Assembly (NCBI RefSeq): GCF_963678975.1 | Contig: NC_089272.1 | Coordinates: forward strand, 2,848,359 to 2,912,358 | Origin: Dysidea avara | Taxonomy: Eukaryota; Porifera; Demospongiae; Dictyoceratida; Dysideidae | Direction of reading: 5' to 3' | DNA length: 64,000 nt | In this document: piece after piece, positions 2,160 to 63,477 of the stretch | Numbering within the stretch: position 1 is the first letter of the stretch | Layout: each line of letters begins with the position of its first letter | The notes under the pieces: model-generated | Told to the model about the DNA's origin: nothing | What the model saw: only the letters and a program-made list of their open reading frames with translations | Databases searched by the model: none | Position numbers and translations under genes: made by a program

Positions 2160-2231
2160 CTTTACTACCATTATAGCCGGGTGGTCCTATTGTACCATTG
2201 ATCCCTGGTGACCCCAGACAACCCTTTTCTC
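2160..2231 (-). CDS. Collagen exon, 72 bp, with cysteine
   Basis: Acceptor gttaacag precedes 2231 and donor gtgaggtg follows 2160. It encodes eight Gly-X-Y triplets containing GEKGCLGSPGINGT and GPPGYNGSK. The Cys could make an interchain disulfide. It is the intact form from which the shorter array exons appear to derive by deletion of ~18 bp near the acceptor and 9 bp near the donor. Confidence 0.8.
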
Positions 2232-5200
2232 CTGTTAACACAAAACCAATAACATCAGACAACTGAAACAAAACAGCAAATAAAGTTTGGCAAATTTCCT
2301 TTAATTCCCTAAATTCACTAAACCATAATAATGCCAAACTTTCATTGTTTACGGTGAGTTGTAGGTACAGTACTAAGTCAAGCACTAAAGATAACAATTA
2401 AACTCATAATACCGTATGGAGGCAAATTTTGGCACCAGCAAATCTGGTGAATGACCATTATTTTACCAAATTTGCCCCATCCAAATATTATGTTTGCAAG
2501 CCCCCTAAACGAAGAAAAAATTAAGAAGCCAAACTTTGAGGGCCCATATTTCACAATTGTGTAGGTAGTTTTGCTCAAATTTGGGGGGAGGGGAGGCGGA
2601 GGGCATTTGCAGTACAAAATTTGAGAAGGGAGCATTGAAATTTGTTTGATTCACCAAAATTTCCCTCCACCAAAGTTTCCCTCTGTACAATGGATTTCAT
2701 TTTTATCTGTGCATTAAAATTTTGCAATATCAAATATAAGACTTACGGTAGTGTGTTGTGCGGCCAAGAAAGCCCCATGGGTATATGTACAGGAAGAAAG
2801 AAAACATTTTTATGTATAAGTAGCTCCCAGTAAACAAAATAAAATTAATTCTAAAGCTATGCAACTATCAACGACAGGGTCAGACTATAGTTCACCTCAT
2901 GGTGGCACTTACAATGTGTCTGGGCTCCAAGATACCATGAGTATTTTGTAACTCAGTAATCGATAGCTGGGAAGATTCTAGCTCAATAATTCAGCAGCCC
3001 TTAGTGATGCAGAGTTACTCAAGGGCCTGCTTGATTCCATCAGCAGCAGGATCACATGTTTATAGACTTGTCTACACACTAATAAATGAACTACAAAGAG
3101 TGATGTTTCCTTAGATTATTCTTTTCACTCTACCAATATCTATCAATACCAAAATGGCTATAATATCCGCTTGGAATTGATGGAATACTAGAGAAGTTAC
3201 AATAGTATTGTATTACAGAGTTTATTTGATTGCTTATCCATGAACAAGCAAGCACATTATTTTATAGAGCAATATCGGCAATTATCAGCATTGGTTTTTG
3301 TGCAGATCCTTTGGCTTTGATATTGCTAAGTACTTTTCTGCATTGGTACAGCACTACTTTGTCTTACATGATCATCATAACAATGACTTGTGTAAAAACA
3401 AGCCTCAATGTATAATGACACTTACCAGGATTGGAAACAGAAGTCGCACACATGATAATTTTACATAGAAATTATACAGTGGACGGTAAATCCCTTTGAA
3501 GTTATCCGTGTTCTGCCTTCTCTACTTCCGAGTGTGGCAGGCTGCTTCGTACAGTAAGTGCAATGGAACTTTCTCGAAAGTATTACATTTCTAGAGTATA
3601 GAAATAGCCAGTATTTTAATATCATCACTCAGAGTTGAAACTGGAGTTTTATCGGGCTGTGTCACCCGTAAACTAAGTGTGCAGCTGCATTGCAACACCC
3701 CTAGATGACTAGCAAAGCTTAAGTTAGGCCATATTCAGGCTATCACAAGTGTTTAATGTGTTAGTGCAGTTGTATCTTGGCAGAATGCCATTTTTTGGTA
3801 GGTTTTAAGACAAACTCACTTTGTATTTCAGTTTCTTTTTGGTACATGTATTGCCCAGACAAAGCAACAAACCATTTTAAAATTCAGTATGGTGACTCAT
3901 AATTCCTTCTGCTGTGCAGTGTGCACTCCAAATATTGATACAACAACACGGCACTGTTTTCTACTTACAGCAATGATTCTGGACCCTGCAAAATACCATG
4001 CGTAGTACAATGAGGTGAAATATTATGTCAGTCAAAACACAGATACCAGAAACCGCAACTTCCGTTTCCAATCCCATAACCATTAGTACACCTATGCTCA
4101 AAGCCAGTTTATGGTTGGCTTTGAGATATTAAATACACAAAGAAGTGAAATCCATGCAAAAACATCCAAGCTGTATAAAAGGGTGTAGCCTTCAAAAACC
4201 TTGGTGGAAAAGTTGGCATGGTTGCAATAATAAATTTTAATAATGTGCATTATTTCAAAATGTATTATCATCTTTGCAGCAATCAAGATATAACACTGTC
4301 TTGCAAACTTCAGTAAACTGACAAGGTAAATGTACAAACTTTCTTATTACTTTTTAACAGAATGGAATTCAGACCTAAGACCAAGAAGTTATAATGTGAA
4401 CATCTAATTAACATAAATATGTAACAAGAACACAAGCTAGTAATTATGTAATTACTCTAATAGAGCAGTCATATAGCAAGTAACTTCATACAATGTAGAC
4501 TTCCAACACTAGGCAAGTATGAAAAAAGATGTGATATATCATTGCCGTTAGTGTCACATTTTTTCATACATACTAACCTATTGTTGAAAACCACACTCTT
4601 TCACAGCTAAACTGTTTTGAGCTACATATACACTATCTATGGTGCAGCCTCCAAGACAGGGCGAAAAAAAGTTGTCCATCAAAGATGGTAGCCATGAAAT
4701 GACACATTTGTTACATATGTTTTTGTTTTCATGGTATAGCACCTTGATCTTTGATCCAATTTCCATTCTATAAAATGTATCTTTATAGTTTATGTCATAC
4801 ACATTACATAGGTTGGTTAAACCTTTTCTGTAAACACATACAGGTGTAATGAACCAGTGGAAGCATCCATGTCAAGTTAGTTGATGTTATGCATATGGGC
4901 AGCAAAACGTTTAAGAACTATATAGTAGTTTTTTTGTTCTAGTGTGTTGTAAACCAGTTGTGAATGTATTGCATATATTAAACATGCAAAATAATGAATC
5001 TTAGTCATTATTACATGCTGAATTGCATCATCCATGGCAGAGTTATCTGATAGCTGGATATTAACACAAGGTCGATAATTAGTGTTTTGTACAATGTACG
5101 TGTGGTTGATAACACATGTTGGTGGTTGATAACACATGTTGGTGGTTGATAACACATGTTGGTGTTTGATAATACATGTTTACACGGTTTCAGTCAAGCA

Positions 5201-7315
5201 TGCAGAATGTTTAAATAAACCAGTCTACGAAAATTGCACTGTCTCCATTAGATAGCTCAAGGATCACTAAAAAAGATCATGAAAACTGGAAGTTTGTAGG
5301 ATATTCCTGCAGTGAGCTATGACTAAAGGGATCAAACTTGATCATTAATTGGTTGCTCACTGTACCATGCACCATTAATTTGATGATAATTATTTTTGCT
5401 CACGCTCTCAAATACAATGGTTACTATTTTAACATATTAAATACCCATATGCACCTACGTATCAATACAGTAGCACATGTCAGTCACCTCACCTTTACTC
5501 CCATTGTAACCTGGTTCACCCATTGTACCATTAATACCAGGATCACCTGAGACAAACAACACATACATGTATAAAGTGATTCTATGTAATATTATACATG
5601 ATGTACTTTGTGCGAGAGGAATCATACTGATGCGTGAAAAGGTTTTAACTTTTTGATCACGGTGCAAATACTTGAAGTACACAAAAAATTTTGGAATTTT
5701 CAACTAGAGTAGGGACCATAGCATTTTGATAAAAAGTACTGAAACAAGCTGGAGTAGTGTATGATATTAAATCACAGAAAAACAATAAGAAGTGTCATAT
5801 CCCTACTGTGCTCCAAGATACCACAACAGAAATGCACAGTGGGGATATAACACTTCTTATTGTTTTACTGTGATTCAATATTGTGCACTACTCCAGCTTG
5901 TTTCAGTATTTTTTATCGATGTGCTATGGTCCCTACTCTAGCTGAAAATTTGTGTTAACTGTTTTTTGTAAATAATTATTATGATTGGTAAACCCACGCA
6001 TACCACATCTTAAATGGCACTGCGTGCCCCAGCTATATCAATTATCATCTGAAAAGTGAAGTATCTGTTGTCAGTTATGTTCAACCCATTACACAGTATT
6101 TCGAATCAAGAACTGTTCTAAAAGCACCTCTGCAATTCATGCATACCAAAAGAAAGAAATGGCGCCACGTGCCCAATTATATCATATATCATCTGAAAAG
6201 TGAAGTATCCATTACACTTCGTTGTCGGCTTTGTTCAACCCGTTACACAGCAGTACGAATCAAGAACTGTTTGAAAAGCACCTCAGCAATCACAATAGCC
6301 ACTATGAAAAATACAGACAATTTTCTTTACGGAGGGAAGCCATCACATGCTACTGCCAAATCAACACTTTTCACTGTCAGCAAAGATGAATGGGACACAA
6401 AGGAAGACACTGGTAAGTCCATGAAGAATGCATTATACGGACTGTGGTATGCAAAAGGCATCTCTTGGGCCGAAGCGACATCGAACAGTGAAAAAATCAA
6501 GCCCGTAGCCTTAGAGCCATTGAAGGCATTAGTTACTCAGTCAGTCAGTAGAAAATTCTATTAATTTTTTTTAATTTTGTAGCAACTTGTTGAAAGCATT
6601 TCGGATCGATCTGAAGGCTTGTTTGGGCTTAGTTTTGCCTAACCAATACTGCCTCATCGTCATCAAGGAAAATTGAGGCTGGTTTTAGGTGATGTTATTT
6701 CGTGGACCACACCTATTCCTTTGTGGTCCCTACTATGTATGATATGCCACAATATCATATGTATTCCCTGTGTATTCCCTGTGTATTCCCTGTGTATTCC
6801 CTGTGTATTCCCTGTGTATTCCCTGTGTCACACTATTTACTTCTATATGTTACCATAACCACAAAGCAACACAAAGTTGTAAGTCTTGACAAGCTACAAT
6901 CAAACGCTTCAAATCATAACAATTGCACACTACGTGGCTTCACACTAAGAAGGTCATATACACATAACTACTATGGCTTGATTACAAGCTATCTGATTGG
7001 CTAAAAACAAGGCATTTCAATACAAGAGTGCCATGTGTAGTCTCTATTATATGGTGATGACCACAGTACAAAACACACATCTAAATTTAGCACAACAGGT
7101 TTGAATCATTTATAGTAGAAGTAGCACGCATAACTTGGTTCATTGTTATTAGCAGCTGAAATGATAAACATTAGTCAGCAATGTTTCACTCGGGCACCAC
7201 AATAAATGATATTGTAATGATACTGGAGAACAATAAATTTCCAAACTGCAATTTAACTGCTATAAGTACGTATAAGTAATGACATACAATGAACACACAC
7301 ACACACACACACACG

Positions 7316-7364
<49 letters not shown>

Positions 7365-10300
7365 CACACACATACTGTACTCTATGTCATCATTGCTCCT
7401 CACCTCTACTCCCAGGTGGTCCTATTGTACCATTGATCCCTGGTAATCCTGTTAACACAAAACTGTTAATGTTACAGCAATTATCATTACATAGAGTAAA
7501 GGAAACACCTTTCATGGTAATGTAAACTCTTCAGGGGTAACTACAACTTCCTACATAAGTATTTTCAAAGAGTTGCTGCTTCTCTTTTACAGAATGGTGC
7601 TGGTTTTCCACTAAAATACAGAGGTGCTAAATCCCCCCCTACAATGGAAACTCCCAAGGGGAGTAATGGTTATCCCTTATTTTTAATGGTGTAATTGCAA
7701 ACTGTCTTTTTTTATAAGTATAAACCTACAACTAATCCTCACAATACTATACATCACATCATCATTACTCCTCACCTCTACTCCCAGGTGGTCCTATTGT
7801 ACCATTGATCCCTGGTAATCCTGTTAACACAAAACTGTTAATGTTACAGCAATTATCATTACATAGAGTAAAGGAAACACCTTTCATGGTAATGTAAACT
7901 CTTCAGGGGTAACTACAACTTCCTACATAAGTATTTTCAAAGAGTTGCTGCTTCTCTTTTACAGAATGGTGCTGGTTTTCCACTAAAATACAGAGGTGCT
8001 AAATCCCCCCCAACACTGGAAACTCCCAAGGGGAGTAATGGTTATCCCTTATTTTTAATATTTATTTATTTATTTATTTATTTATTAATGCTTTACAGCA
8101 CAAGTGCTGAAGGTCTGTAGGACACCTGGTCCTACAGCCTGCTCAAAGACCTTAGCTACTTAGACTTTAACTACTTAAGGTGTGTTTGAAAAGTTGGAGA
8201 AAGGAGAAAAAATCCATGACTGGACCTAGGTAGCCTCGAACCTGCAGCCATCCGATTTACGCTCGAATGCTTACAGGAGTCTACCAGGTGGTCAGGATGT
8301 TTTCTCCTTGTTATTTTCATGTAATTATATCCATAGGGATTCTAGAGAGTAACTCATAATAGTGTAATTGCAAACTGTCTTTTTTTATAAGTATAAACCT
8401 ACAACTAATCCTCACAATACTATACATCACATTACATTACTCCTCACCTCTACTCCCAGGTGGTCCTATTGTACCATTGATCCCTGGTACTCCTGTTAAC
8501 ACAAAACTGTTAACGTTACAGCAATTATCATTACATAGAGTAAAGGAAACACCTTTCATGGTAATGTAAACTCTTCAGGGGTAACTACAACTTCCTACAT
8601 AAGTATTTTCAAAGAGTTGTTGTTTCTCTTTTACAGAATGGTGCTGGTTTTCCACTAAAATACAGAGGTGCTAAATCCCCCCCTACACTGGAAACTCCCA
8701 AGGGGAGTAATGGTTATCCCTTATTTTTAATAGTGTAATTGCAAACTGTCTTTTTTTATAAGTATAAACCTACAACTAATCCTCACAATACTATACATCA
8801 CATCATCATTACTCCTCACCTCTACTCCCAGGTGGTCCTATTGTACCAGTGATCCCTGGTAATCCTGTTAACACAAAACTGTTAACGTTACAGCAATTAT
8901 CATTACATAGAGTAAAGGAAACACCTTTCATGGTAATGTAAACTCTTCAGGGGTAACTACAACTTCCTACATAAGTATTTTCAAAGAGTTGCTGCTTCTC
9001 TTTTACAGAATGGTGCTGGTTTTCCACTAAATACAGAGGTGCTAAATCCCCCCCTACACTGGAAACTCCCAAGGGGAGTAATGGTTATCCCTTATTTTTA
9101 ATAGTGTAATTGCAAACTGTCTTTTTTTATAAGTATAAACCTACAACTAATCCTCACAATACTATACATCACATCATCATTACTCCTCACCTCTACTCCC
9201 AGGTGGTCCTATTGTACCACTGATCCCTGGTAATCCTGTTAACACAAAACTGTTAACATTAGAGCAATTATTTTATTAATTAATGCTTTACAGCACAAGT
9301 GCTGAAGGTCTGTAGGACACCTGGTCCTACAGCCTGCTCAAAGACTTTAGCTACTTAGACTTTAACTACTTAAGGTGTGTTTGAAAAGTTGGAGAAATTA
9401 TCAGTACATAGGAGTAAAGGAAACACCTTTCATGGTAATGTAAACTCTTCAGGGGTAACTACAACTTCCTACATAAGTATTTTCAAAGAGTTGCTGTTTC
9501 TCTTTTACAGAATGGTGCTGGTTTTCCACTAAAATACAGAGGTGCTAAATCCCCCCCTACACTGGAAACTCCCAAGGGGAGTAATGGTTATCCCTTATTT
9601 TTAATAGTGTAATTGCAAACTGTCTTTTTTTATAAGTATAAACCTACAACTAATCCTCACAATACTATACATCACATCATCATTGCTCCTCACCTCTACT
9701 CCCAGGTGGTCCTATTGTACCACTGATCCCTGGTAATCCTGTTAACACAAAACTGTTAACGTTACAGCAATTATCATTACATAGAGTAAAGGAAACACCT
9801 TTCATGGTAATGTAAACTCTTCAGGGGTAACTACAACTTCCTACATAAGTATTTTCAAAGAGTTGCTGCTTCTCTTTTACAGAATGGTGCTGGTTTTCCA
9901 CTAAAATACAGAGGTGCTAAATCCCCCCCTACACTGGAAACTCCCAAGGGGAGTAATGGTTATCCCTTATTTTTAATATTTATTTATTTATTTATTAATG
10001 CTTTACAGCACAAGTGCTGAAGGTCTGTAGGACACCTGGTCCTACAGCCTGCTCAAAGACCTTAGCTACTTAGACTTTAACTACTTAAGGTGTGTTTGAA
10101 AAGTTGGAGAAAGGAGAAAAAATCCATGACTGGACCTAGGTAGCCTCGAACCTGCAGCCATCCGATTTACGCTCGAATGCTTACAGGAGTCTACCAGGTG
10201 GTCAGGATGTTTTCTCCTTGTTATTTTCATGTAATTATATCCATAGGGATTCTAGAGAGTAACTCATAATAGTGTAATTGCAAACTGTCTTTTTTTATAA

Positions 10301-13300
10301 GTATAAACCTACAACTAATCCTCACAATACTATACATCACATCATCATTACTCCTCACCTCTACTCCCAGGTGGTCCTATTGTACCACTGATCCCTGGTA
10401 ATCCTGTTAACACAAAACTGTTAACGTTACAGCAATTATTTTATTAATTAATGCTTTACAGCACAAGTGCTGAAGGTCTGTAGGACACCTGGTCCTACAG
10501 CCTGCTCAAAGACTTTAGCTACTTAGACTTTAACTACTTAAGGTGTGTTTGAAAAGTTGGAGAAATTATCATTACATAGAGTAAAGGAAACACCTTTCAT
10601 GGTAATGTAAACTCTTCAGGGGTAACTACAACTTCCTACATAAGTATTTTCAAAGAGTTGTTGTTTCTCTTTTACAGAATGGTGCTGGTTTTCCACTAAA
10701 ATACAGAGTTGCTAAATCCCCCCTACACTGGAAACTCCCAGGGGGAGTAATGGTTATCCCTTATTTTTAATAGTGTAATTGCAAACTGTCTTTTTTTATA
10801 AGTATAAACCTACAACTAATCTTCACAATACTATACATCACATTACATTACTCCTCACCTCTACTCCCAGGTGGTCCTATTGTACCATTGATCCCTGGTA
10901 CTCCTGTTAACACAAAACTGTTAACGTTACAGCAATTATCATTACATAGAGTAAAGGAAACACCTTTCATGGTAATGTAAACTCTTCAGGGGTAACTACA
11001 ACTTCCTACATAAGTATTTTCAAAGAGTTGCTGTTTCTCTTTTACAGAATGGTGCTGGTTTTCCACTAAAATACAGAGTTGCTAAATCCCCCCCTACACT
11101 GGAAACTCCCAAGGGGAGTAATGGTTATCCCTTATTTTTAATAGTGTAATTGCAAACTGTCTTTTTTTATAAGTATAAACCTACAACTAATCCTCACAAT
11201 ACTATACATCACATCATCATTACTCCTCACCTCTACTCCCAGGTGGTCCTATTGTACCAGTGATCCCTGGTAATCCTGTTAACACAAAACTGTTAACGTT
11301 ACAGCAATTATCATTACATAGAGTAAAGGAAACACCTTTCATGGTAATGTAAACTCTTCAGGGGTAACTACAACTTCCTACATAAGTATTTTCAAAGAGT
11401 TGCTGCTTCTCTTTTACAGAATGGTGCTGGTTTTCCACTAAAATACAGAGGTGCTAAATCCCCCCCTACACTGGAAACTCCCAAGGGGAGTAATGGTTAT
11501 CCCTTATTTTTAATAGTGTAATTGCAAACTGTCTTTTTTTATAAGTATAAACCTACAACTAATCCTCTCAATACTATACATCACATCATCATTACTCCTC
11601 ACCTCTACTCCCAGGTGGTCCTATTGTACCATTGATCCCTGGTAATCCTGTTAACACAAAACTGTTAACGTTACAGCAATTATCATTACATAGAGTAAAG
11701 GAAACACCTTTCATGGTAATGTAAACTCTTCAGGGGTAACTACAACTTCCTACATAAGTATTTTCAAAGAGTTGCTGCTTCTCTTTTACAGAATGGTGCT
11801 GGTTTTCCACTAAAATACAGAGGTGCTAAATCCCCCCCAACACTGGAAAGTCCCAAGGGGAGTAATGGTTATCTCTTATTTTTAATATTTATTTATTTAT
11901 TTATTTATTAATGCTTTACAGCACAAGTGCTGAAGGTCTGTAGGACACCTGGTCCTACAGCCTGCTCAAAGACCTTAGCTACTTAGACTTTAACTACTTA
12001 AGGTGTGTTTGAAAAGTTGGAGAAAGGAGAAAAAATCCATGACTGGACCTAGGTAGCCTCGAACCTGCAGCCATCCGATTTACGCTCGAATGCTTACAGG
12101 AGTCTACCAGGTGGTCAGGATGTTTTCTCCTTGTTATTTTCATGTAATTATATCCATAGGGATTTTAGAGAGTAACTCATAATAGTGTAATTGCAAACTG
12201 TCTTTTTTTATAAGTATAAACCTACAACTAATCCTCACAATACTATACATCACATTACATTACTCCTCACCTCTACTCCCAGGTGGTCCTATTGTACCAT
12301 TGATCCCTGGTAATCCTGTTAACACAAAACTGTTAACGTTACAGCAATTATCATTACATAGAGTAAAGGAAACACCTTTCATGGTAATGTAAACTCTTCA
12401 GGGGTAACTACAACTTCCTACATAAGTATTTTCAAAGAGTTGCTGTTTCTCTTTTACAGAATGGTGCTGGTTTTCCACTAAAATACAGAGGTGCTAAATC
12501 CCCCCTACACTGGAAACTCCCAAGGGGAGTAATGGTTATCCCTTATTTTTAATAGTGTAATTGCAAACTGTCTTTTTTTATAAGTTTAAACCTACAACTA
12601 ATCCTCACAATACTATACATCACATCATCATTACTCCTCACCTCTACTCCCAGGTGGTCCTATTGTACCACTGATCCCTGGTACTCCTGTCAACACACAA
12701 CTGTTAACGTTACAGCAATTATCATTACATAGAGTAAAGGAAACACCTTTCATGGTAATGTAAACTCTTCAGGGGTAACTACAACTTCCTACATAAGTAT
12801 TTTCAAAGAGTTGCTGCTTCTCTTTTACAGAATGGTGCTGGTTTTCCACTAAAATACAGAGGTGCTAAATCCCCCCCTATACTGGAAACTCCCAAGGGGA
12901 GTAATGGTTATCCCTTATTTTTAATAGTGTAATTGCAAACTGTCTTTTTTTATAAGTATAAACCTACAACTAATCCTCACAATACTATACACCACATCAT
13001 CATTACTCCTCACCTCTACTCCCATTATATCCAGGTGGTCCTATTGTACCATTGATCCCTGGTAATCCTGTTAACACAAAACTGTTAACGTTACAGCAAT
13101 TATCATTACATAGAGTAAAGGAAACACCTTTCATGGTAATGCAAACTCTTCAGGGGTAACTACAACTTCCTACATAAGTATTTTCAAAGAATTGCTGTTT
13201 CTCTTTTACAGAATGGTGCTGGTTTTCCACTAAAATACAGAGGTGCTAAATCCCCCCCTACACTGGAAACTCCCAAGGGGAGTAATGGTTATCCCTTATT

Positions 13301-16300
13301 TTTAATAGTGTAATTGCAAACTGTCTTTTTTTATAAGTATAAACCTACAACTAATCCTCACAATACTATACATCACATCATCATTACTCCTCACCTCTAC
13401 TCCCAGGTGGTCCTATTGTACCATTGATGCCTGGTAATCCTGTTAACACAAAACTGTTAACGTTACAGCAATTATCATTACATAGAGTAAAGGAAACACC
13501 TTTCATGGTAATGTAAACTCTTCAGGGGTAACTACAACTTCCTACATAAGTATTCTCAAAGAGTTGCTGCTTCTCTTTTACAGAATGGTGCTGGTTCTAA
13601 AATACAGAGGTGCTAAATCCCCCCCAACACTGGAAACTCCCAAGGGGAGTAATGGTTATCCCTTATTTTTAATAGTGTAATTGCAAACTGTCTTTTTTTA
13701 TAAGTATAAACCTACAACTAATCCTCACAATACTATACATCACATCATCATTACTCCTCACCTCTACTCCCAGGTGGTCCTATTGTACCACTGATCCCTG
13801 GTAATCCTGTTAACACAAAACTGTTAACGTTACAGCAATTATTTTATTAATTAATGCTTTACAGCACAAGTGCTGAAGGTCTGTAGGACACCTGGTCCTA
13901 CAGCCTGCTCAAAGACTTTAGCTACTTAGACTTTAACTACTTAAGGTGTGTTTGAAAAGTTGGAGAAATTATCAGTACATAGAGTAAAGGAAACACCTTT
14001 CATGGTAATGTAAACTCTTCAGGGGTAACTACAACTTCCTACATAAGTATTTTCAAAGAGTTGCTGTTTCTCTTTTACAGAATGGTGCTGGTTTTCCACT
14101 AAAATACAGAGGTGCTAAATCCCCCCCTACACTGGAAACTCCCAAGGGGAGTAATGGTTATCCCTTATTTTTAATAGTGTAATTGCAAACTGTCTTTTTT
14201 TATAAGTATAAACCTACAACTAATCCTCACAATACTATACATCACATCATCATTACTCCTCACCTCTACTCCCAGGTGGTCCTATTGTACCATTGATCCC
14301 TGGTAATCCTGTTAACACAAAACTGTTAACGTTACAGCAATTATCATTACATAGAGTAAAGGAAACACCTTTCATGGTAATGTAAACTCTTCAGGGGTAA
14401 CTACAACTTCCTACATAAGTATTTTCAAAGAGTTGTTGTTTCTCTTTTACAGAATGGTGCTGGTTTTCCACTAAAATATAGAGGTGCTAAATCCCCCCCT
14501 ACACTGAAAACTCCCAAGGGGAGTAATGGTTATCCCTTATTTTTAATAGTGTAATTGCAAACTGTCTTTTGTTTTTAATTTTTATAAGTATAAACCTACA
14601 ACTAATCCTCACAATACTATACACCACATCATCATTACTCCTCACCTCTACTCCCATTATATCCAGGTGGTCCTATTGTACCATTAATCCCTGGTAACCC
14701 CTGACAACCCTTCTCTCATGTTAACACAAAGATTATAGCATTCCAACATAACTAGCAGAACAGTAGAACTGTCTAGTAGGGATCATGGAGGTTTGGGCTT
14801 TCTTGCCTATGAATATTATCCCAAATAGCCTCACTTTCCTTCATGGCAGCTTGGCAGTATTGGTTAGGCATAACCAAGCCCCTAAATGTCTTCAGAGAGA
14901 CCCTAAACCCTTCCAGCTTTCTATGAAGCTTTGTTATTCTACACAATTATGTGGCTCGGGTCATTGATATTAACAGCTGAAATGGTCAGCAATGTTTCAC
15001 TCAGGTACCACAACACAGGGCCTTCAAGTTAAGACCCCTCACACTTGTATATCATGTATGTATATACATGTATGTATGCACATGCTACTGAGAAAGAAAT
15101 AACATAAGGATCTTTCCATTATAATGGTACCAATTTTCTAAACTTTTTATCTGCAGTTTAACTGCTGAGGTACAGCAGCTTTAAGCAAGTAATAAAATGA
15201 CATATGACTAGTACTGCAGGAGAATACATACACTACATACATGGTCTATACACCACATCATCATTGTTTTCATATTCACCTCACCTGTACTACCATTATA
15301 TCCAGGTGGTCCTATTGTACATAATACAAAACTGTTAATGTCACATCAGTTATTGTAACATACATAACTATTGAATTGTATGTAGCTGTACCTTCCATGT
15401 AATATCAAGGAAATAAAGACAATTAAACTAAGTACTACGTTAGGCAATAAAGATTACAATAACTTCATAGTATGTGACTGGATTTTGGAAAAACGATCCA
15501 ATTCACATGTTAGAAGTTTCAAGATAAACTGTTTTAAAGAATTCAAGTCAGCATAACTTGCCAAGGATAGCAAGCACACATATGAAATTCACACAAAAAA
15601 TGCATCAATCTATTACCTTTCACACCACTTCCAGTACTTGTAGCTGCTCATAGAGTTTCCCACCAAAAAAGATAGAAAATATGAGCAGTTGGACAAGCAA
15701 AGTAGTATCACGAGTGCTCACAAAGGGGTGGAGGGTGGAGAGTGGTAGGGAGGGCAAGAGATAGATTTCAAAATGGAGGCAGACCACAATTGGAATCCAG
15801 ACATGGGATTACAGGGCTGTGCTGGCTTGTTAGTGGCTGATATGTAGCAAAATCAACAGAAAAAATGTCTGGCCAACATTGTCAGGCTGTCCACCAGTAA
15901 AGCACTGATTCTTGCCAAGCCAGGTCATTCACAAGGCCTGAAACCACCATTCGAGCACTTCACACCACCCAGAAAAGACGTCTGTTAAAACAGCCTCTAG
16001 TAGTTTGAGTAGTGCTGAGTGTCAAAACTAGTACTGCGATAGTGTAGCTTTCCACTGGTGGTGTTAGTTTGATTTTGCCTGATTTGCAATTTGGATCAGT
16101 TTTGTAAAAACTTGGTCACATAATATGTGGATTACACTGTTATTCTTTCAATTTCTTGTGTGATATTTTTCATATGATGTCATACATAGCAGCATACACT
16201 ACATACTAGTACCATGTAAAATTAGTTTGATATCTCAATATTATTCCCACGCTCTCAAATATACTAGTATGTTTAATTTAACAATGAAGCAGGGATCCAA

Positions 16301-19300
16301 GCAATGAAACAAGAGATGAATATGATGGTATTATTTACAGCATAGCTCAGTGGTAAAGTCCACGTTATAACAGTTTGCCAAAGGAGAGATTTCCTACTTA
16401 GCTATGCTGTAATACCATCATTCATTCCTTGTTTCACTACTTTTTATTGCTTGGATCCCTACTTCATTGTTAAATTATATATTTTAAAAATATTCTAGTC
16501 TTTTGTTATAGTATACAGCCATACACATGTGACTGTTCTATTAGGGTGACTGCTGTATTAGAGTACAGTCTTTAACCTACCAAGGAAGTGTCACTATTTG
16601 TGACCCAGTTTGGAAAAACTGGTCTTATTGCCTATTTAAAAGTATCAAGAAATGCTGGTTTTAAGTATTCAGTGTGTTGTAGCTTGCCAATGGTTCAAGC
16701 TATGTGTACCAAATTTTCACACATTTTACACTAATTCCTTACCTTCCAGAACATCCACTGTACAAGTAGCCAACAGCTAAGTTTATACTGTGACCAGCAT
16801 TTAATGGTAAAACTGGTAAACTTAGTCATTTAGCCAACAGCTAAGCTTACCATTTTAGATAGTTTTAAACTCGATCTTGACTGTATCAGGCACTCTCAAA
16901 ACTGGCTAAAATGAAAAAGACATTTACAGGTCTTTATTCAACACCACGTGTACAGAGCAGTACAACCGCATACAGCCATCCCCAGGCTGGCCAGAGCTCC
17001 ATTAGGACCCCAGACCACTTGTACGGATTGTCAGTGTGTTTGGGAAAAGTAGCCAGCAAAAGCAGACCACTCAAGTCTTGATTGATAGTTACTGTGTTGA
17101 TTAATAATGATTGAGTGCAGAGACCACATATCTTAATCTATTTACTTGATCATGATGACCACACCTCCTTTTATTGGTCTAGCTGTATAATTCTAGCATA
17201 GTGAAAATATGAAATCTGTCATGTAGCTTTGTGTTCTTGGTGAAAAATCTAATTTGTTGTCATGGGTAAAGTCACATTTCATATTTTCACTATGCTAGCA
17301 TTATGAAGCTAGATCAACAATATGGAGGTGTGGTCATCATGATCATGAAAATAGATTGTTACGAGGTGTGGTTTCTGCACTCAATGATTATTAATCAACC
17401 AAGATTGTTAATGGACGTGATTTCAAACCTATTATGAAGTTACAGGCATCTACCAGGTGTCCAGTAGCTACCTCTTATAGTAGTATAATCACCTTAAATA
17501 GTTTTGTGGCATCTAAAAGTATGTTGTTCAAGGAAAGTGTTGATGTGGAAATTTAATGTATTCATTGTATGAAGAAGACAAAGGACCAGCCTGATAGAAG
17601 ATAAAAGGAAAGACAAGGCACAGAGCGCACACACTTGTCAGAACCCCAAAAGGCACATTCCACTGGTGAGTTTGTTATTGTGGCATTAAATGGTGGCCGC
17701 GTGCTGCTTCATTAGCCTCCAGCCATGACTGTGGTCAGGCAAGCAGGTAGACTGGCTGGCTGACTGACTGGCAGATGTTTTGGCGATTTCTTAAATTCTA
17801 TATCCAACTGCCTGTAAGTGTTTTCTTGTTTTTAATGCTGCATTTGGTTAATATTATTCCATACAGGTGATTTTCATCATGCAAGATGTCTCTAGGATGT
17901 GATGACTTTTAAAGGTGACATTTTAGGTGGCTCACGTCACTTTGGGGGATTCCTACTTCAACATTTTTGATTACATTTGTACTATTCTAACTTAACATAC
18001 ATACTAAATACCTATGATATTATTTGGTATCAGTACAGTAGCATATGTCAGTCACCTCACCTATACTCCCATTGTAACCTGGTTCACCCATTGTACCATT
18101 AATACCAGGATCACCTTTTGGTCCTTTGAGACAAACAACACATACATGTACATTATAACACATAAAATTACTAATAGTCATTCTATACATTATATTATTT
18201 GTTGTACTTTGTGTGGGAGGAATCACAGTGCTGATGTGTAACCTATCATGACAAGGTTTAACTATTTTGCATCACGATTCAAAATATTTAATGGTGTATA
18301 TATATGCCACAATATAATTATGTCATACACCTATTTCCCTGTGCTACACTATTAGTTTTACTTCTATATGTGACAAAGCAACACAAAGTTGTAAGTCTTG
18401 GCAAGCTACAATCAAACACTACAAATCATGACAAGTGCACACACTATGCAGCTTCAGACTAAGAAGGTCACATGCAAATTACACATAACTGCTATGGCTT
18501 GTTTAGACTTAAACAAGTTATCTGATTGGCTGAAAACAATTGCAAGACATTTAAACACTACGGTGCCAAGAGAAGTCTCTATTACGTGTATGGTGACTAC
18601 AGTACAAAGCTGTACACGCCTCTAAATTTAGCAACAGGTTTGAACTGTTTACGGGTGGAGCAGCAAGCACTAGTGTTTTCCTACACAATTACCTGACTTA
18701 GTTTGTTGTTATTAGCAGTTGAAATGGTAACGGTTAGTCAGCAATGTTCCACTCAGGCACCACAACAGGTTACTATAGTATAATAGTCCCCTCACTTAGC
18801 CATACAACTCAGCTCTCATGTACACATACAAGCTTAGAATAGTAGTAACAAAATCATTCTATTTTATTTTGCTAGGTGAATACTGTGACATACACAATAG
18901 GGTTAAATACAATCACTCTAATGCACATTGAAGGCTTTGAATTCAGATTAGGGCTGAAACAGATATCCTGAGAAAATCTTTCCGGATATCCTACTGATAG
19001 TGACATCATCACTTACTATAAGATGTTGCATATTTACTTGTTTTACTAGTACTTGAGAATAGAAACAAAAACTAACATTCTTATGGAAAATAGTTAATTG
19101 TGGAAGCCATGTATCAAGGAAATGTTACGTTATTAGAAACTATCCTAATGGCTTCAAACTGCTATCCAGATAGTACATTATTATCTGGATATCAGGAATA
19201 ATATGGACATACCTACCTCAGCCCTAATTCAGATAGTAAAATTGGTACCCAAGCCAAAAAGATCACATGATCCATTTGCATCAGCTCACACAATGTACTT

Positions 19301-24125: not shown

Positions 24126-25512
24126 ACCATGATCACCTTTTTGCCCACAACATACACCATAATATTTGTACATGGATAAAATGTGATATTACATAAAGAC
24201 CCTTATCTTTGAAGATAAAAATAAATTCAAATGTAACCTGCTTTCAAATTTAAACATTATTGTTTCTGTTTCAAATCCAGAATGGCTGATGTTGGAAATG
24301 GAAGAAATGGAATTCATGTTATCTACTGCTTATCACAGCTATTTAGTGATATGAGTTGGCAGAGCTGCAAAATAATAATTTACCCACCTCATTCAAGACT
24401 TCCCAGCATGCTGTCCAATACATGGCAGATATTAGGGATTGAAATTATTACACCCGTAAATCGGTTTTAACAAGCATGTGTCAATAATTTTTGATACCAA
24501 ATCATGAATATTCAAAATGTGCACTCAGCAAAATTTAAAACCACAAACTTCATCCCCTTTTCAGCTTTGAAGTACTATCACTTAGCAACAGTGTTGTTAC
24601 AGATGCTTGTGTCTGGTAGCAGCTAATCTCTGGATGTGACTACTGGACTGATTTTTTTGCATATAACTATGATCGTGTTCTACCGTATGCAAATGTGTGT
24701 TGGAATGAGAGTGTGCATGACAAGCATAATAACATACCTTTTGGTGGTACACCACAGACACACTGGTTGAAGGTTCTTGCAATATCACTCATCACTCCAA
24801 CCTGCATCTCTATCATGTTCTCTTGTCGTCGATATATGGTATGAGGCAGCTCCACACCAGCTGCTCTCCTTTGTGCTCTAACTGGTCTAGTAGTGAAAAG
24901 GTCTTGATCTGCTGTTATGTGATCAGGCTTGGAATTCTTCTGATCTGAAACCGAAAGAAAAGAGCTATACTATATTATCAAGAGTTCACCCCATATGAAC
25001 TCTTGATATAATGTAGTGACATATGGTTTAACCACTAAATAAATTCATAAGGGATTGTTCCATTGTGTCTCAGTATTCATAAGGGATTGTTCCATTGTGT
25101 CTCAGTGACTACTTGAAGCATTCTTACAGCCATACACACATTACTTATAGTGTTGGGACGGGAGTAGTACTGCTTTGGTTAGTTTCACAGTTTAAAATTT
25201 CAAAACAGTACCCTTGCTACTTTCTGACTTGAAAACAAAAACTCCATGCATAAAGCACTTTATTTGTTTATCTGTTTATTTATGATTAAATTACAGACTG
25301 ACACCTTTAACATCATGTTTATCATCACTGGGCCACAATCCAGCCATATTCTCCAGTGTCCTAATCTGTATTGAATACCTGTCAACTGATGATTGTAACA
25401 AATCAATGTTCAGTTTTGACTGCTCCCATTGCCAAGTGAGAATGACCAATGAATTCAAATTAACAACAGAGAGAATTCCAAGCACTACAATACTAGTAGT
25501 TAACTTGTCCAT
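2160..25512 (-). CDS. Type II transmembrane (MACIT-like) collagen, multi-exon, 3' end outside window
   Basis: Exon 1 (25305-25512) starts at ATG 25512 and encodes a 7-residue cytoplasmic tail, a hydrophobic anchor (about residues 7-27, IVVLGILSVV...) and a heptad-like stretch. Exon 2 (24738-24944) holds R89-P-V-R92-A-Q-R95-R96, a furin-like RxxR cluster, and ends with C131-V-C133-G before the first Gly-X-Y. Collagen exons follow: 18061-18123 (63 bp), 14646-14717 (72 bp, acceptor damaged), sixteen array exons (7404-13439 and on to 14318), 5493-5546 (54 bp) and 2160-2231 (72 bp, with GEKGCLG). All start and end in phase 1 through a split Gly codon, so any can be skipped or duplicated without a frameshift. 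Anchor + neck + furin site + triple helix is the plan of collagens XIII/XXIII/XXV; homology to them is inferred. No C-terminal exon or stop was found. The longest gap, 18124-24737, could hide exons I missed. Confidence 0.75.
2409..2689. mobile_element. MITE with TACCGTATGGAGG ends
   Basis: The left end taccgtatggaggcaaattttgg pairs with the right end ccaccaaagtttccctctgtaca. The interior has inverted tracts around 'accaaatttgcc'. The same ends bound the composite element at 19429-22000. Confidence 0.6.
5101..5180. repeat. 20 bp minisatellite, four copies
   Basis: The unit tggtggttgataacacatgt is repeated four times, with the last copy diverged. It lies in a collagen intron. Confidence 0.85.
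5493..5546 (-). CDS. Collagen exon, 54 bp
   Basis: Acceptor tttgtctcag precedes 5546 and donor gtgaggtgac follows 5493. It encodes six triplets, GDPGINGTMGEPGYNGSK, nearly the same as the exon at 18061-18123, which carries one extra leading triplet (GPK). The two flank the 45 bp array on either side. Confidence 0.85.
5679..5955. mobile_element. Foldback MITE family A, copy 1
   Basis: Long inverted arms: ggaattttcaactagagtag at the left and ctactctagctgaaaatt at the right. Inner arms share 'aataagaagtgtcatatccctac' and its complement. Other copies: 52785-52982 (truncated), 54873-55096 and 56907-57392. Confidence 0.8.
5956..6745. repeat. Dispersed repeat J, copy 1
   Basis: The sequence downstream of MITE A recurs at 57393-57960 and in part at 52983-53310 and 53985-54330. 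Shared blocks include 'tgttcaacccgttacacagc', 'gaagccatcacatgctac', 'tgaaaaaatcaagcccgtag' and 'ctttgtggtccctactat'. The 5' part is internally duplicated (about 6040-6130 and 6180-6280). A 141-codon frame at 6139-6564 lies here. It is broken in the other copies and is probably not a gene. Confidence 0.65.
6757..6828. repeat. 11 bp minisatellite
   Basis: The unit tgtattccctg is repeated about six to seven times without interruption, at the end of repeat J in a collagen intron. Confidence 0.85.
7292..7364. repeat. (CA)n microsatellite
   Basis: About 36 CA dinucleotides with a few cg interruptions, about 40 bp 5' (plus-strand sense) of the first collagen array exon. Confidence 0.95.
8061..8361 (-). 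mobile_element. tRNA-related SINE, full-length copy 1
   Basis: Read on the minus strand: a head with a pol III B-box-like ggttcgaggc (8233-8242 in reverse), a body with a hairpin around gtaggacc/ggtcctac, and an (ataa)n tail at 8061-8090. Copies at 9979-10272 and 11888-12183 sit at the identical position of the array unit. Confidence 0.75.
9267..9396 (-). mobile_element. 5'-truncated SINE, copy 1
   Basis: Body and tail only, without the tRNA-like head. It is inserted at 'gcaattat', with aattat repeated at the other side as a probable target duplication. The same insertion recurs at about 10437-10567 and 13849-13969. Confidence 0.75.
9979..10272 (-). mobile_element. tRNA-related SINE, full-length copy 2
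   Basis: Same sequence and same intron position as the copy at 8061-8361, with a shorter (ataa)n tail. Confidence 0.75.
10437..10567 (-). mobile_element. 5'-truncated SINE, copy 2
   Basis: Identical in extent and site to the copy at 9267-9396. Confidence 0.75.
11888..12183 (-). mobile_element. tRNA-related SINE, full-length copy 3
   Basis: Same site and extent as the copies at 8061-8361 and 9979-10272. Confidence 0.75.
13849..13969 (-). mobile_element. 5'-truncated SINE, copy 3
   Basis: Same site and extent as the short copies at 9267 and 10437. Confidence 0.75.
14646..14717 (-). CDS. Collagen exon 72 bp with damaged acceptor
   Basis: Matches the 2160-2231 exon (GEKGCQGLPGINGTIGPPGYNGSR). 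The base expected to complete the AG is changed: ...gttaacat precedes the coding sequence where the sister exon has gttaacag. An AG 3 bp inside (atgag) keeps the phase but would replace the leading Gly, interrupting the Gly-X-Y repeat by one residue. The exon may be used in that form or skipped. Confidence 0.6.
15285..15320 (-). pseudogene. Relic collagen exon
   Basis: The last 36 bp of a collagen exon (GPPGYNGST-like) with an intact gtgaggtg donor. The exon's first part and its acceptor are deleted: 'attgtac' joins directly to 'ataatacaaaactg', which in array units is intron sequence. It cannot be spliced in as an internal exon. Confidence 0.8.
15321..16270. other. Collagen intron, nothing recognised
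   Basis: About 0.95 kb with no convincing exon, RNA gene or repeat structure. The stretch at 15640-16030 is somewhat richer in GC than its surroundings, but its frames are broken. Confidence 0.4.
16271..16478. mobile_element. Foldback MITE family C, copy 1
   Basis: Inverted arms: aatgaagcagggatccaagc at the left and gcttggatccctacttcatt at the right. The inner arms carry 'gatgaatatgatggtatta...gcatagctcagtgg' and its complement. Other copies: 27206-27340, 46646-46828, 46890-47078 and 59711-59922. Confidence 0.8.
17096..17400. mobile_element. Foldback MITE family D
   Basis: The left arm gttgattaataatgattgag pairs with the right arm ctcaatgattattaatcaac. The inner parts pair around gcatagtgaaaatatgaaat. 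A left-arm relative occurs at about 45880-46010 and another trace at 59440-59560. Confidence 0.8.
17575..17960. repeat. Dispersed repeat F, copy 1
   Basis: Shares blocks with 26660-27050 ('ctgtaagtgttttcttgttt', 'gatgtctctaggatg', 'gggattcctact') and in part with 44820-45180 and 59085-59360. No coding frame is conserved. Confidence 0.55.
18061..18123 (-). CDS. First Gly-X-Y exon of the collagen gene, 63 bp
   Basis: Acceptor gtctcaaag precedes 18123 and donor gtgaggtgac follows 18061. It encodes GPKGDPGINGTMGEPGYNGSI in frame with the exon ending ...CVCGVPPK at 24738. Phase 1 at both ends. Confidence 0.85.
   Translation of the reverse strand, partial: DQKVILVLMVQWVNQVTMGV
19429..22000. mobile_element. 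Composite: MITE E ends around a 2 kb inverted-repeat element
   Basis: The outer ends (actgtatggagggaaactttgg at 19431 and ccaaagtttccctccatatggta ending at 22000) match the MITE at 2409-2689. Inside sits a second element with arms of roughly 390-420 bp at 19648-20065 and 21290-21675, ending in agcagtttcagcacgtgatc and its complement. The centre (20066-21289) may hold decayed transposase: a frame near 20240-20380 reads FTGAHTSLPNLGVPKATFD, which I find weakly reminiscent of PIF/ISL2EU-type transposases. That family call is a guess. Confidence 0.6.
22141..22778 (+). pseudogene. 3' fragment of a non-LTR retrotransposon reverse transcriptase
   Basis: Translation in shifting frames gives a typical LINE RT tail: KSNVMWFRG, then a KQKYLG motif, then LYYALPVWGPSLTQQ, LPFQNLIQFRSV, TRVKPLFVSPYRW and YKASDWWNSVPASLHNTINR before a stop. 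Interrupting stops and frame changes show it is dead. A 3' tail of TATC repeats follows. Confidence 0.65.
22957..23517. mobile_element. Short TIR element inserted in a TATC microsatellite
   Basis: The ends taccgtatagcgggttattttcg and cgaaaattaccagctatatggta are inverted. TATC repeats lie on both sides, consistent with insertion at TA in a pre-existing microsatellite. The interior is rich in ttcgaa. Confidence 0.7.
23517..24125. repeat. ~600 bp (TATC/TGTC)n compound microsatellite
   Basis: Alternating blocks of tatc and tgtc tetranucleotides with regular tatatc interruptions, the largest simple repeat in the window. The long open frames over it (YLSVCLSV...) come from the repeat and are not genes. 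Confidence 0.98.
24738..24944 (-). CDS. Collagen gene exon 2: neck with furin-like site and CxCG
   Basis: Acceptor ggtttcag precedes 24944 and donor gtatgtt follows 24738; 207 bp, phase 1 at both ends. It encodes an extracellular neck with RPVRAQRRAAG, a stretch likely to form a coiled coil (YRRQENMIEMQVGVMSDIA) and NQCVCGVPPK leading into the triple helix. Confidence 0.8.
25040..25105. repeat. Direct duplication, ~31 bp
   Basis: 'ttcataagggattgttccat' plus 'tgtgtctcag' occurs twice head-to-tail in collagen intron 1. Confidence 0.85.
25305..25512 (-). CDS. Collagen gene exon 1: start and membrane anchor
   Basis: ATG at 25512 opens a frame MDKLTTSIVVLGILSVVNL... with an uncleaved signal anchor and few charged residues before it. 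Donor gtgtca after 25305 gives phase 1, matching exon 2. The first Met is chosen because only a short hydrophilic tail precedes the anchor. Confidence 0.75.
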
Positions 25513-49738: not shown

Positions 49739-49917
49739 ATTACAGTAATTTTCTTTATAGCGCCCACTGGTCACACCCACATTAAAAAAAATTTTTTTTT
49801 TTTTGTATGTGGTGCACACCCACCGAGCCCGACACCGACCTTATGTCAACTCAAGCAACACCTCTTCTAGTTCAATTGCTGAATCGTGCTCTCTCTAGGG
49901 CTTGAATCTGAGAAATA
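49739..49917. promoter_or_regulatory. Bidirectional promoter candidate, receptor 2 / TRAF 1
   Basis: Only 179 bp separate the two start codons. It contains an A/T homopolymer junction (about 49785-49805) and 'tcgtgctctct', which is also present in the equivalent 173 bp spacer at 63305-63477. Core elements cannot be defined from sequence alone. Confidence 0.55.
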
Positions 49918-55534: not shown

Positions 55535-63304
<7,770 letters not shown>

Positions 63305-63477
63305 GGACACACCCACCACAGCCAGATCAAGTGACACACCACAATCGACAAGCCCACCACAGGCACCATGACTCGAGTTAGGGGCGAGACTTATAGACTC
63401 GAGTAAAATCTCTCCTGGTCCATTTGTTGGTTCGTGCTCTCTAATAGAAGATTGAATTGGAGAAGTAACTTAGTCTA
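63305..63477. promoter_or_regulatory. Bidirectional promoter candidate, receptor 3 / TRAF 2
   Basis: 173 bp between divergent start codons, the counterpart of 49739-49917. Shares 'cgtgctctct' near the TRAF side, but is otherwise clearly diverged and lacks the A/T homopolymer. Confidence 0.55.

What the first reader, a model, noticed from the sequence alone, without database searches (positions are those of the whole stretch)
7380..14720. Seventeen tandem copies of a single collagen exon unit inside one gene
A ~372 bp unit (45 bp exon plus intron) is repeated head-to-tail with nearly identical introns and intact splice sites. Every exon is phase 1 to phase 1, so the copy number directly sets the length of the triple helix without frameshifts. 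This is ongoing growth of a structural protein by exon amplification. Near-identity suggests recent expansion and likely length polymorphism between individuals.
Basis: partly seen in the sequence, partly recalled or inferred. Interest (0 to 1): 0.92.

Follow-up and report, generated by a model that had tools for sequence, protein, structure and literature searches.

The report
Collagen gene lengthening by exon copies
An animal collagen gene carries seventeen near-identical head-to-tail copies of one small in-frame exon with its intron, a young trace of how collagen rods can grow, but in this genome copy the gene's end domain is out of frame, so a working long protein is not shown.

Summary
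The array is real: 17 exon copies at 7404-14690, on the MINUS strand, all phase 1-1. Fifteen are 45 bp, one is 54 bp (13014-13067). The 5'-most (14646-14690) has lost its acceptor and is 45 bp only through an internal AG. Ten of 16 spacings are 367-382 bp; six are 500-672 bp because of two SINE-like insertions. All 16 introns carry a ~208-bp dispersed element.

I traced the host gene beyond the window. It is type-IV-like: hydrophobic N-terminus with heptads, Cys-X-Cys, 21 small helix exons, a 1,113-bp helix exon and a two-exon C4/NC1 domain; exon linkage is predicted, not seen in RNA. It is one of three tandem paralogues. The array gives 86 of 110 triplets of the small exons. I saw no such array in the other two; gene 2 has a ~9-copy repeat inside one exon.

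Units differ by 1.5% on average in introns and SINE copies are 99.7-100% identical, so growth was recent and moved multi-unit blocks.

Against "ongoing growth of a structural protein": NC1 has an 8-bp deletion relative to paralogue 2 and is frameshifted here. Transcripts, populations and reads were not testable.

The parts
25305..25512 (-). predicted exon 1: start codon, hydrophobic stretch, heptad region; ends phase 1
   Evidence: reading frame and splice sites; same exon in paralogue 2, 3 amino-acid changes in 62 codons; similar N-terminal ORF in paralogue 3
24738..24944 (-). predicted exon 2: RAQRR and CVCG just before the helix; phase 1-1
   Evidence: same exon in paralogue 2, 6 amino-acid changes in 61 codons, but there the donor place reads GC, not GT
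18061..18123 (-). helix exon A1, 63 bp (54 bp if the internal acceptor is used)
15285..15311 (-). helix exon B1, 27 bp, 5' part lost, in frame
14646..14690 (-). array exon 17 (5'-most); old acceptor lost, 45 bp from internal AG; includes the GYN triplet
14264..14308 (-). array exon 16, 45 bp
13762..13806 (-). array exon 15, 45 bp
13395..13439 (-). array exon 14, 45 bp
13014..13067 (-). array exon 13, 54 bp, keeps the GYN triplet that the fifteen standard 45-bp copies lack
12642..12686 (-). array exon 12, 45 bp
12271..12315 (-). array exon 11, 45 bp
11603..11647 (-). array exon 10, 45 bp
11231..11275 (-). array exon 9, 45 bp
10859..10903 (-). array exon 8, 45 bp
10359..10403 (-). array exon 7, 45 bp
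9694..9738 (-). array exon 6, 45 bp
9191..9235 (-). array exon 5, 45 bp
8820..8864 (-). array exon 4, 45 bp
8448..8492 (-). array exon 3, 45 bp
7776..7820 (-). array exon 2, 45 bp
7404..7448 (-). array exon 1 (3'-most), 45 bp
5493..5546 (-). helix exon A2, 54 bp, 1 of 54 bases different from A1
2160..2231 (-). helix exon B3, 72 bp, taken as nearest to the pre-array form of the unit exon (inference)
11313..11520 (.). copy of a ~208-bp dispersed repeat inside the unit intron; present in all 16 array introns
   Evidence: 39 further places in the genome at 78-82% identity, 40 of 107 candidates scored; 16 copies in the array
8060..8360 (.). SINE-like insertion, long form, copy 1 of 3
9977..10270 (.). 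SINE-like insertion, long form, copy 2 of 3 (100% to copy 1 over 294 bp)
11886..12183 (.). SINE-like insertion, long form, copy 3 of 3 (99.7% to copy 1 over 298 bp)
9268..9392 (.). truncated SINE-like insertion, copy 1 of 3
10436..10560 (.). truncated SINE-like insertion, copy 2 of 3 (identical)
13839..13963 (.). truncated SINE-like insertion, copy 3 of 3 (identical)

Best explanation
A coding exon-intron unit of a collagen-IV-type gene has been amplified in place. Shown by sequence: a helix exon sits with an intron that holds a dispersed ~208-bp element; this unit stands 16-17 times head to tail; single units and blocks of several units are shared along the array, with two SINE-like insertions copied along inside those blocks; every exon starts and ends inside a Gly codon (phase 1), so any copy number keeps both the reading frame and the Gly-X-Y register. 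Inferred: the unit exon descends from a longer B-type exon (72, 54, then 45 bp, by whole Gly-X-Y triplets); the dispersed element was there before amplification and the SINE-like ones came during it; the copying mechanism is unequal exchange between misaligned near-identical units, possibly with gene conversion; the exons are spliced in one after the other and lengthen the N-terminal part of the triple helix from about 29 (one copy) to 110 triplets. Unresolved: the assembled copy has a frameshift in the NC1 domain, so whether this individual makes a working long chain is open.
For: 17 exons, all phase 1-1, no stop in the modelled 468-codon part. Pfam Collagen E 1.5e-55. Older exons A1 and A2 differ at 1 of 54 bases while their aligned intron bases are 83% (619 bp, 268 gap columns) and 86% (59 bp) identical; simple binomial P 0.0004 and 0.0035, so these small helix exons look constrained. 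Exons 1 and 2 recur in paralogue 2 with 3 and 6 amino-acid changes in 62 and 61 codons, and an exon-1-like ORF in paralogue 3. A large helix exon and two C4 exons lie downstream on the same strand before the next gene begins. The long SINE-like insertion occupies the same intron position in units 2, 6 and 10, the short one in 5, 7 and 15, copies 99.7-100% identical. Blocks such as 7387-9271 / 11214-13103 are collinear over 1.9 kb at 98%. The list of Gly-X-Y stretches over the 80 kb to the left shows no repeated small helix exon in paralogues 2 and 3; elsewhere the scored genome matches cover only the ~208-bp intron element (39 places).
Against: 8-bp deletion in NC1: as assembled the protein stops after residue 888, soon after NC1 begins. 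Among array copies exon sites are no more conserved than intron sites (3 of 45 against 27 of 327 variable, Fisher P 1.0; exon diversity 2.9% over 36 columns against 1.5%), so the array itself shows no purifying selection. No transcript evidence: the joining of exons across introns of up to about 12.7 kb is predicted from phase and order. In paralogue 2 the place of the exon-2 donor reads GC, so that junction is not confirmed. The 5'-most copy has lost its original acceptor.
Confidence: 0.72

Rival explanations
1. The array grew, or now drifts, in a gene that no longer makes a working collagen: after the NC1 frameshift, helix length is free to change and the array is neutral.
For: NC1 frameshift; the first C4 half of this gene matches only from profile position 27 while five other C1 loci match from position 1 or 2 to 109 in one frame; no exon constraint among array copies; lost acceptor in the 5'-most copy.
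Against: Codons after the deletion still differ from paralogue 2 almost only silently (NC1a 8 silent, 1 changed of 107; NC1b 3 and 0 of 75), so the lesion looks young, unless NC1 was copied from paralogue 2; N-terminal exons, large helix exon and array exons are open.
Confidence: 0.22
2. The copy number, or the 8-bp deletion, is an assembly error.
For: Near-identical repeats are where assemblies go wrong; no reads were available here.
Against: Units carry distinct markers (SINE-like insertions, 54-bp exon, single-base variants) in different combinations; the contig is 65 Mb, which suggests a long-read assembly (inference); none of the scored matches on other contigs holds the exon.
Confidence: 0.08
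3. The copies are alternative cassette exons rather than all constitutive, so many helix lengths come from one gene.
For: Phase 1-1 exons can be skipped singly or together without frameshift; 45-bp exons are very short; 58 of 110 Gly codons of the small exons offer an in-frame AG|G (the array copies inflate this count).
Against: All 17 donors and 15 of 17 acceptor strings (last 20 bases) are identical, so nothing marks one exon for choice; no RNA evidence.
Confidence: 0.1

Closest known systems
Exon-duplication model of collagen genes (Yamada 54-bp unit; 54/45-bp scheme of Exposito and others)
   Same: Small exons of 54 and 45 bp that encode whole triplets, multiplied inside one gene; 45 bp from 54 bp by loss of one triplet (PMC2852846 and PMC4450265, passages read).
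   Different: Those are inferred ancient events in fibrillar genes whose exons begin with an intact Gly codon. Here introns are still near-identical, the exons split Gly codons, and the gene is type-IV-like. PMC4450265 states that sequence analysis of collagen I gave no clue to which exons were duplicated.
LPA kringle IV type 2 coding VNTR
   Same: Head-to-tail highly homologous units of exons plus introns that set protein length (PMC11462820, start of abstract and passages read).
   Different: LPA unit is 5.6 kb with two exons and 1 to about 40 copies per allele; here ~0.37 kb with one 45-bp exon, polymorphism unknown, another protein family.
Tandem collagen IV genes of ctenophores
   Same: Unidirectional tandem collagen IV genes with exons up to 4.9 kb (PMC5395295, passages read).
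   Different: No exon-unit array is mentioned in the passages read; here the N-terminus has a hydrophobic and heptad segment. Whether the ctenophore cysteine loop is present was not tested.

Membership tests
Collagen IV | NC1 made of two C4 subdomains | tested here: met
   Paralogues 2 and 3 match PF01413 on both halves; PDB collagen IV NC1 chains, e.g. 1m3d E 6.7e-52 and 1li1 E 8e-35.
Collagen IV | NC1 readable in one frame in the array-bearing gene itself | tested here: not met
   8-bp deletion relative to paralogue 2; first C4 half matches from profile position 27 only.
Collagen IV | HSQ motif in both C4 halves and 12 Cys | tested here: inconclusive
   Paralogue 2: HSQ in the first half, HSM in the second; 12 Cys counted by eye from the ORFs. 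Paralogue 3 has HSQ in both. The HSQ criterion is from PMC5395295; the number 12 is recalled.
Collagen IV | about 1400-residue helix with interruptions | tested here: inconclusive
   About 720 residues modelled here, seven interruptions in the large exon; exons missed in the introns cannot be excluded. Paralogue 2 has a 1256-codon ORF.
Collagen IV | split Gly codons at exon junctions | tested here: met
   All 22 junctions of the 23-exon window model are phase 1; in the 20 between helix exons this splits the Gly codon.
Collagen IV | Cys/Lys-rich N-terminal domain | tested here: inconclusive
   Only two Cys (CVC) before the helix; no Pfam match besides Collagen; none of 141 candidates matched residues 1-160 at E <= 10.
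Spongin short-chain collagen | short helix and NC1 without HSQ | tested here: not met
   HSQ present in first C4 half, helix of hundreds of residues.
Fibrillar collagen | helix exons that start with an intact Gly codon | tested here: not met
   All 21 small helix exons split the Gly codon. A fibrillar C-propeptide domain was not searched for in the genome.
Type II transmembrane collagen | uncleaved signal anchor, coiled coil, furin site | tested here: inconclusive
   Mean hydropathy 2.31 over residues 8-26; 8 of 8 heptad core positions hydrophobic, reached by 21 of 5000 shuffles of residues 28-61 and 73 of 5000 of residues 28-138; RAQRR present. Cleavage and topology not testable. Resemblance recalled.
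Intron-containing coding VNTR | near-identical tandem exon-intron units in one gene | tested here: met
Intron-containing coding VNTR | copy number differs between individuals | not testable with these tools
   one assembly only

The most novel reading that the evidence does not exclude
This is helix lengthening caught in the act: a collagen-IV-type chain whose triple-helix length is set by a coding exon-intron VNTR that still varies between individuals, next to a sister gene that lengthened its helix by another route (a ~9-copy 108-bp repeat inside one exon). A further step not excluded: the array-bearing gene has shed its NC1 domain and relies on an N-terminal membrane-anchored coiled coil for trimerisation, which frees helix length from the C-terminal register.
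Probability: 0.3. Interest if true: 0.82.

Novelty: new variant of a known kind. Interest (0 to 1): 0.62.

Why it matters
Collagen genes are thought to have grown by repeated duplication of a 54-bp exon, but PMC4450265 reports that in collagen I the traces are too old to read. This locus keeps the introns, several exon lengths (72, 54, 45, 27 bp) and insertions that mark the order of events, so block size and mechanism of exon amplification can be read from sequence. It also allows direct tests of whether helix length varies between individuals and whether selection or drift drives it. The neighbouring paralogue gives a natural comparison that grew its helix within a single exon.

Tried and rejected
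Tried without gain: Rfam and tRNA scans of the window (nothing). Exon pattern in viral contigs and genome contigs (0 matches; the tool may leave out this genome and its near kin). Homologues of the helix (201 proteins at E <= 0.001 among 1653 candidates, 120 listed, at most 55% identity where one is given; generic collagens). Homologues of the N-terminus (none of 141 candidates at E <= 10). TRAF-like neighbour for taxonomy: 43 proteins: itself, 41 without a name at up to 76%, and one named vertebrate TRAF1 at 24%; the animal's phylum stays unknown (a sponge is my guess only). No structure prediction was run: a lone collagen chain would not be informative.

Considered and rejected: fibrillar collagen (split Gly codons); spongin (HSQ present, long helix); a plus-strand gene (one search lists no plus-strand Gly-X-Y exon); a purely transposon-driven satellite (elsewhere the scored matches cover only the intron element, 39 places). 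Dropped or replaced: my count of in-frame cryptic splice sites used a wrong offset; one search replaces it (its first Gly codon was not checked for AG). One search stopped with an error at the 17th exon; one search covers it. In one search nine exon columns were left out because the 54-bp copy is misaligned there. The exon-candidate table was cut in the output; I used its complete list of Gly-X-Y stretches of four or more triplets, so shorter helix exons may be missed.

Not answered in the end: genome-wide search for the N-terminal exons, the SINE-like element and the exon pattern (not completed). The two C12 loci with C4 matches were not read.
Full report
THE OBSERVATION. Window 7404-14690 holds 17 copies of a collagen helix exon on the minus strand. 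Fifteen are 45 bp and read GLPGINGTIGPPGSR or close variants (N, S or T at one residue, L or V at another); one (13014-13067) is 54 bp and keeps an extra GYN triplet; the 5'-most (14646-14690) has lost its original acceptor and is 45 bp only from an internal AG. All 17 begin and end in phase 1, inside a Gly codon, with AG acceptors and the same gtgagg donor. A scan of 144 kb with up to three mismatches finds the 15 standard copies and no other, all 15 with AG/GT. Spacing is 367-382 bp for 10 of 16 units, 500-503 for three and 665-672 for three.

THE INTRONS. About 208 of the 327 intron bases are a copy of a dispersed element: the unit used as query gives 61 matches in the 550.8-Mb genome (40 of 107 first-look candidates scored, so a lower bound); 22 lie in the array and 39 elsewhere at 78-82% identity, in those 39 the intron part only. 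All 16 array introns hold it, at 96.6-100% identity to the copy at 11313-11520. Two further insertions explain the long units: a ~300-bp SINE-like element in units 2, 6 and 10 (99.7-100% identical) and a truncated relative at another intron position in units 5, 7 and 15 (identical over 125 bp). A B-box-like motif suggests a tRNA-type SINE, but that is recalled and ARAGORN found no tRNA in it; one more copy at 73% lies about 24 kb left of the window. Since every intron has the dispersed element and only some have the SINE-like ones, the first was most likely in the founder intron and the others came during amplification and were copied along.

HOW IT GREW. Mean pairwise substitution difference between units is 1.48% in intron columns and 2.9% in the 36 exon columns that could be compared. 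Long collinear blocks recur, for example 7387-9271 with 11214-13103 (1,895 bp, 98.0%), 8357-9978 with 12922-14548 (97.9%) and 8357-9271 with 10768-11683 (99.1%). This is the pattern of unequal exchange over several units; gene conversion may add to it. Exon lengths differ by whole triplets: 72 bp in B3, 54 bp in array copy 13, 45 bp in 16 copies, 27 bp in B1, 63 and 54 bp in A1 and A2. Of 110 Gly codons in this stretch 58 are preceded by A, which makes an AG|G acceptor in the right phase, and 31 are GGT (the repeated copies inflate both counts). This offers a simple reason why lost or new splice sites and slips between Gly codons keep the register (inference).

THE GENE. Upstream in the window lie exon 2 (24738-24944) and exon 1 (25305-25512), which I predict from frames and splice sites. 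Exon 1 starts MDKLTTSIVVLGILSVVNLNSLVILTW, followed by eight of eight hydrophobic heptad core positions (reached by 21 of 5000 shuffles of residues 28-61 and by 73 of 5000 of residues 28-138); exon 2 has RAQRR and ends in CVCGVPPK before the helix. The modelled part has 468 codons without a stop. To the left of the window (80 kb of C1 fetched) the gene continues with a 1,113-bp helix exon (L002:8339-9451) and two C4/NC1 exons. The next gene of the same kind begins right after: its exons 1 and 2 differ from mine by 3 and 6 amino acids in 62 and 61 compared codons, which supports the prediction; against it, the place of the exon-2 donor reads GC in that gene. Gene 2 shows two small helix exons and a 1,256-codon helix ORF; gene 3 has an N-terminal ORF of the same type, a 767-codon helix ORF and C4 exons. 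Genome-wide the C4 family gives 23 matches (28 of 28 candidates scored): in this cluster, in a second region of C1 (56.87-57.04 Mb) and on C12. In nine 10-kb loci of the second region I saw one gene with many dissimilar helix exons and two partial loci, and no repeated helix exon; a non-collagen repeat of period 31 lies there. The C12 loci were not read.

FAMILY. The NC1 exons of gene 2 match collagen IV NC1 chains of solved structures (6.7e-52 to 1m3d; 8e-35 to 1li1). Split Gly codons fit collagen IV, not fibrillar collagens (PMC5395295 and PMC2852846, passages read). The N-terminus has no homologue in the searches made.

WHAT SPEAKS AGAINST A WORKING LONG COLLAGEN. The first NC1 exon of the array gene has an 8-bp deletion relative to gene 2 at about L002:8080. 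The frame then ends at residue 888. In one search five other C1 loci match the C4 profile from position 1 or 2 to 109 in one frame; the first half of this gene matches only from position 27. Yet the codons behind the deletion differ from gene 2 almost only silently: 8 silent and 1 changed of 107, and 3 and 0 of 75. So the lesion is young, or it is an error, or NC1 was recently copied from gene 2. Exon 1 has 6 silent and 3 changed of 62 codons, exon 2 has 2 and 6 of 61, so the N-terminus is less constrained. Inside the array exon sites vary as much as intron sites (3 of 45 and 27 of 327, P 1.0). Older exons do show constraint: A1 and A2 differ at 1 of 54 bases while their introns are 83-86% identical over aligned bases, gaps left out.

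CONTRIBUTION TO THE PROTEIN. Small helix exons supply 110 triplets, 86 of them from the array. With one copy in place of 17 the stretch would be about 29 triplets (arithmetic). With the large exon the helix is about 720 residues, of which the array gives 258.

LITERATURE. Ten library searches listed no paper whose title or abstract start I recognised as a near-identical collagen exon-intron array; I read passages of PMC4450265, PMC2852846, PMC5395295 and PMC11462820 only, and most subscription papers are not in that library. PMC4450265 calls the search for duplicated exons in collagen I futile, probably because of age. That is the gap this locus could fill.

VERDICT. Ongoing growth, polymorphism and a working product are untested, and the NC1 frameshift is a real warning. 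New variant of a known kind.

Noticed in passing
L003:5106-6075 (paralogue 2): A ~9-copy tandem repeat of 108 bp inside a single large collagen exon (GINGT-containing 33-36-residue unit): the sister gene grew its helix within an exon.
   Followed up: partly
window 2160-18123, minus strand: The older helix exons carry N-G-T and N-G-S, possible N-glycosylation sequons inside a triple helix; many array copies lack them through N to S or T and through the missing GYN triplet.
   Followed up: partly
L002 about 8080: 8-bp deletion in the first NC1 exon of the array gene relative to paralogue 2, with mostly silent differences behind it.
   Followed up: yes
G000 C1 56.87-57.04 Mb (L009-L017): A second region of C4-domain collagen loci, one long gene and two partial copies.
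   Followed up: partly
G000 C1:2804373-2804603 (paralogue 3): One search reports one TAG inside the match of the second C4 half; it may lie at the exon edge, not examined.
   Followed up: no
window 34945-36915: A 61/122-bp tandem repeat of about 2 kb, apart from the collagen array.
   Followed up: no
window 40080-40757, 48974-49819, 62573-63337 (minus): Three seven-helix receptor genes (Dicty_CAR / 7tm_2 matches).
   Followed up: no
window 49918-51753 (plus): TRAF-type zinc finger plus MATH protein of 611 aa, only unnamed close relatives.
   Followed up: no
window 5695-5950: 257-bp inverted-repeat element with further copies at 52.8-57.4 kb.
   Followed up: no
L001:5508-6191 (minus): A 228-codon open frame inside the gene's large intron that looks like a transposon protease (resemblance recalled, not tested).
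   Followed up: no
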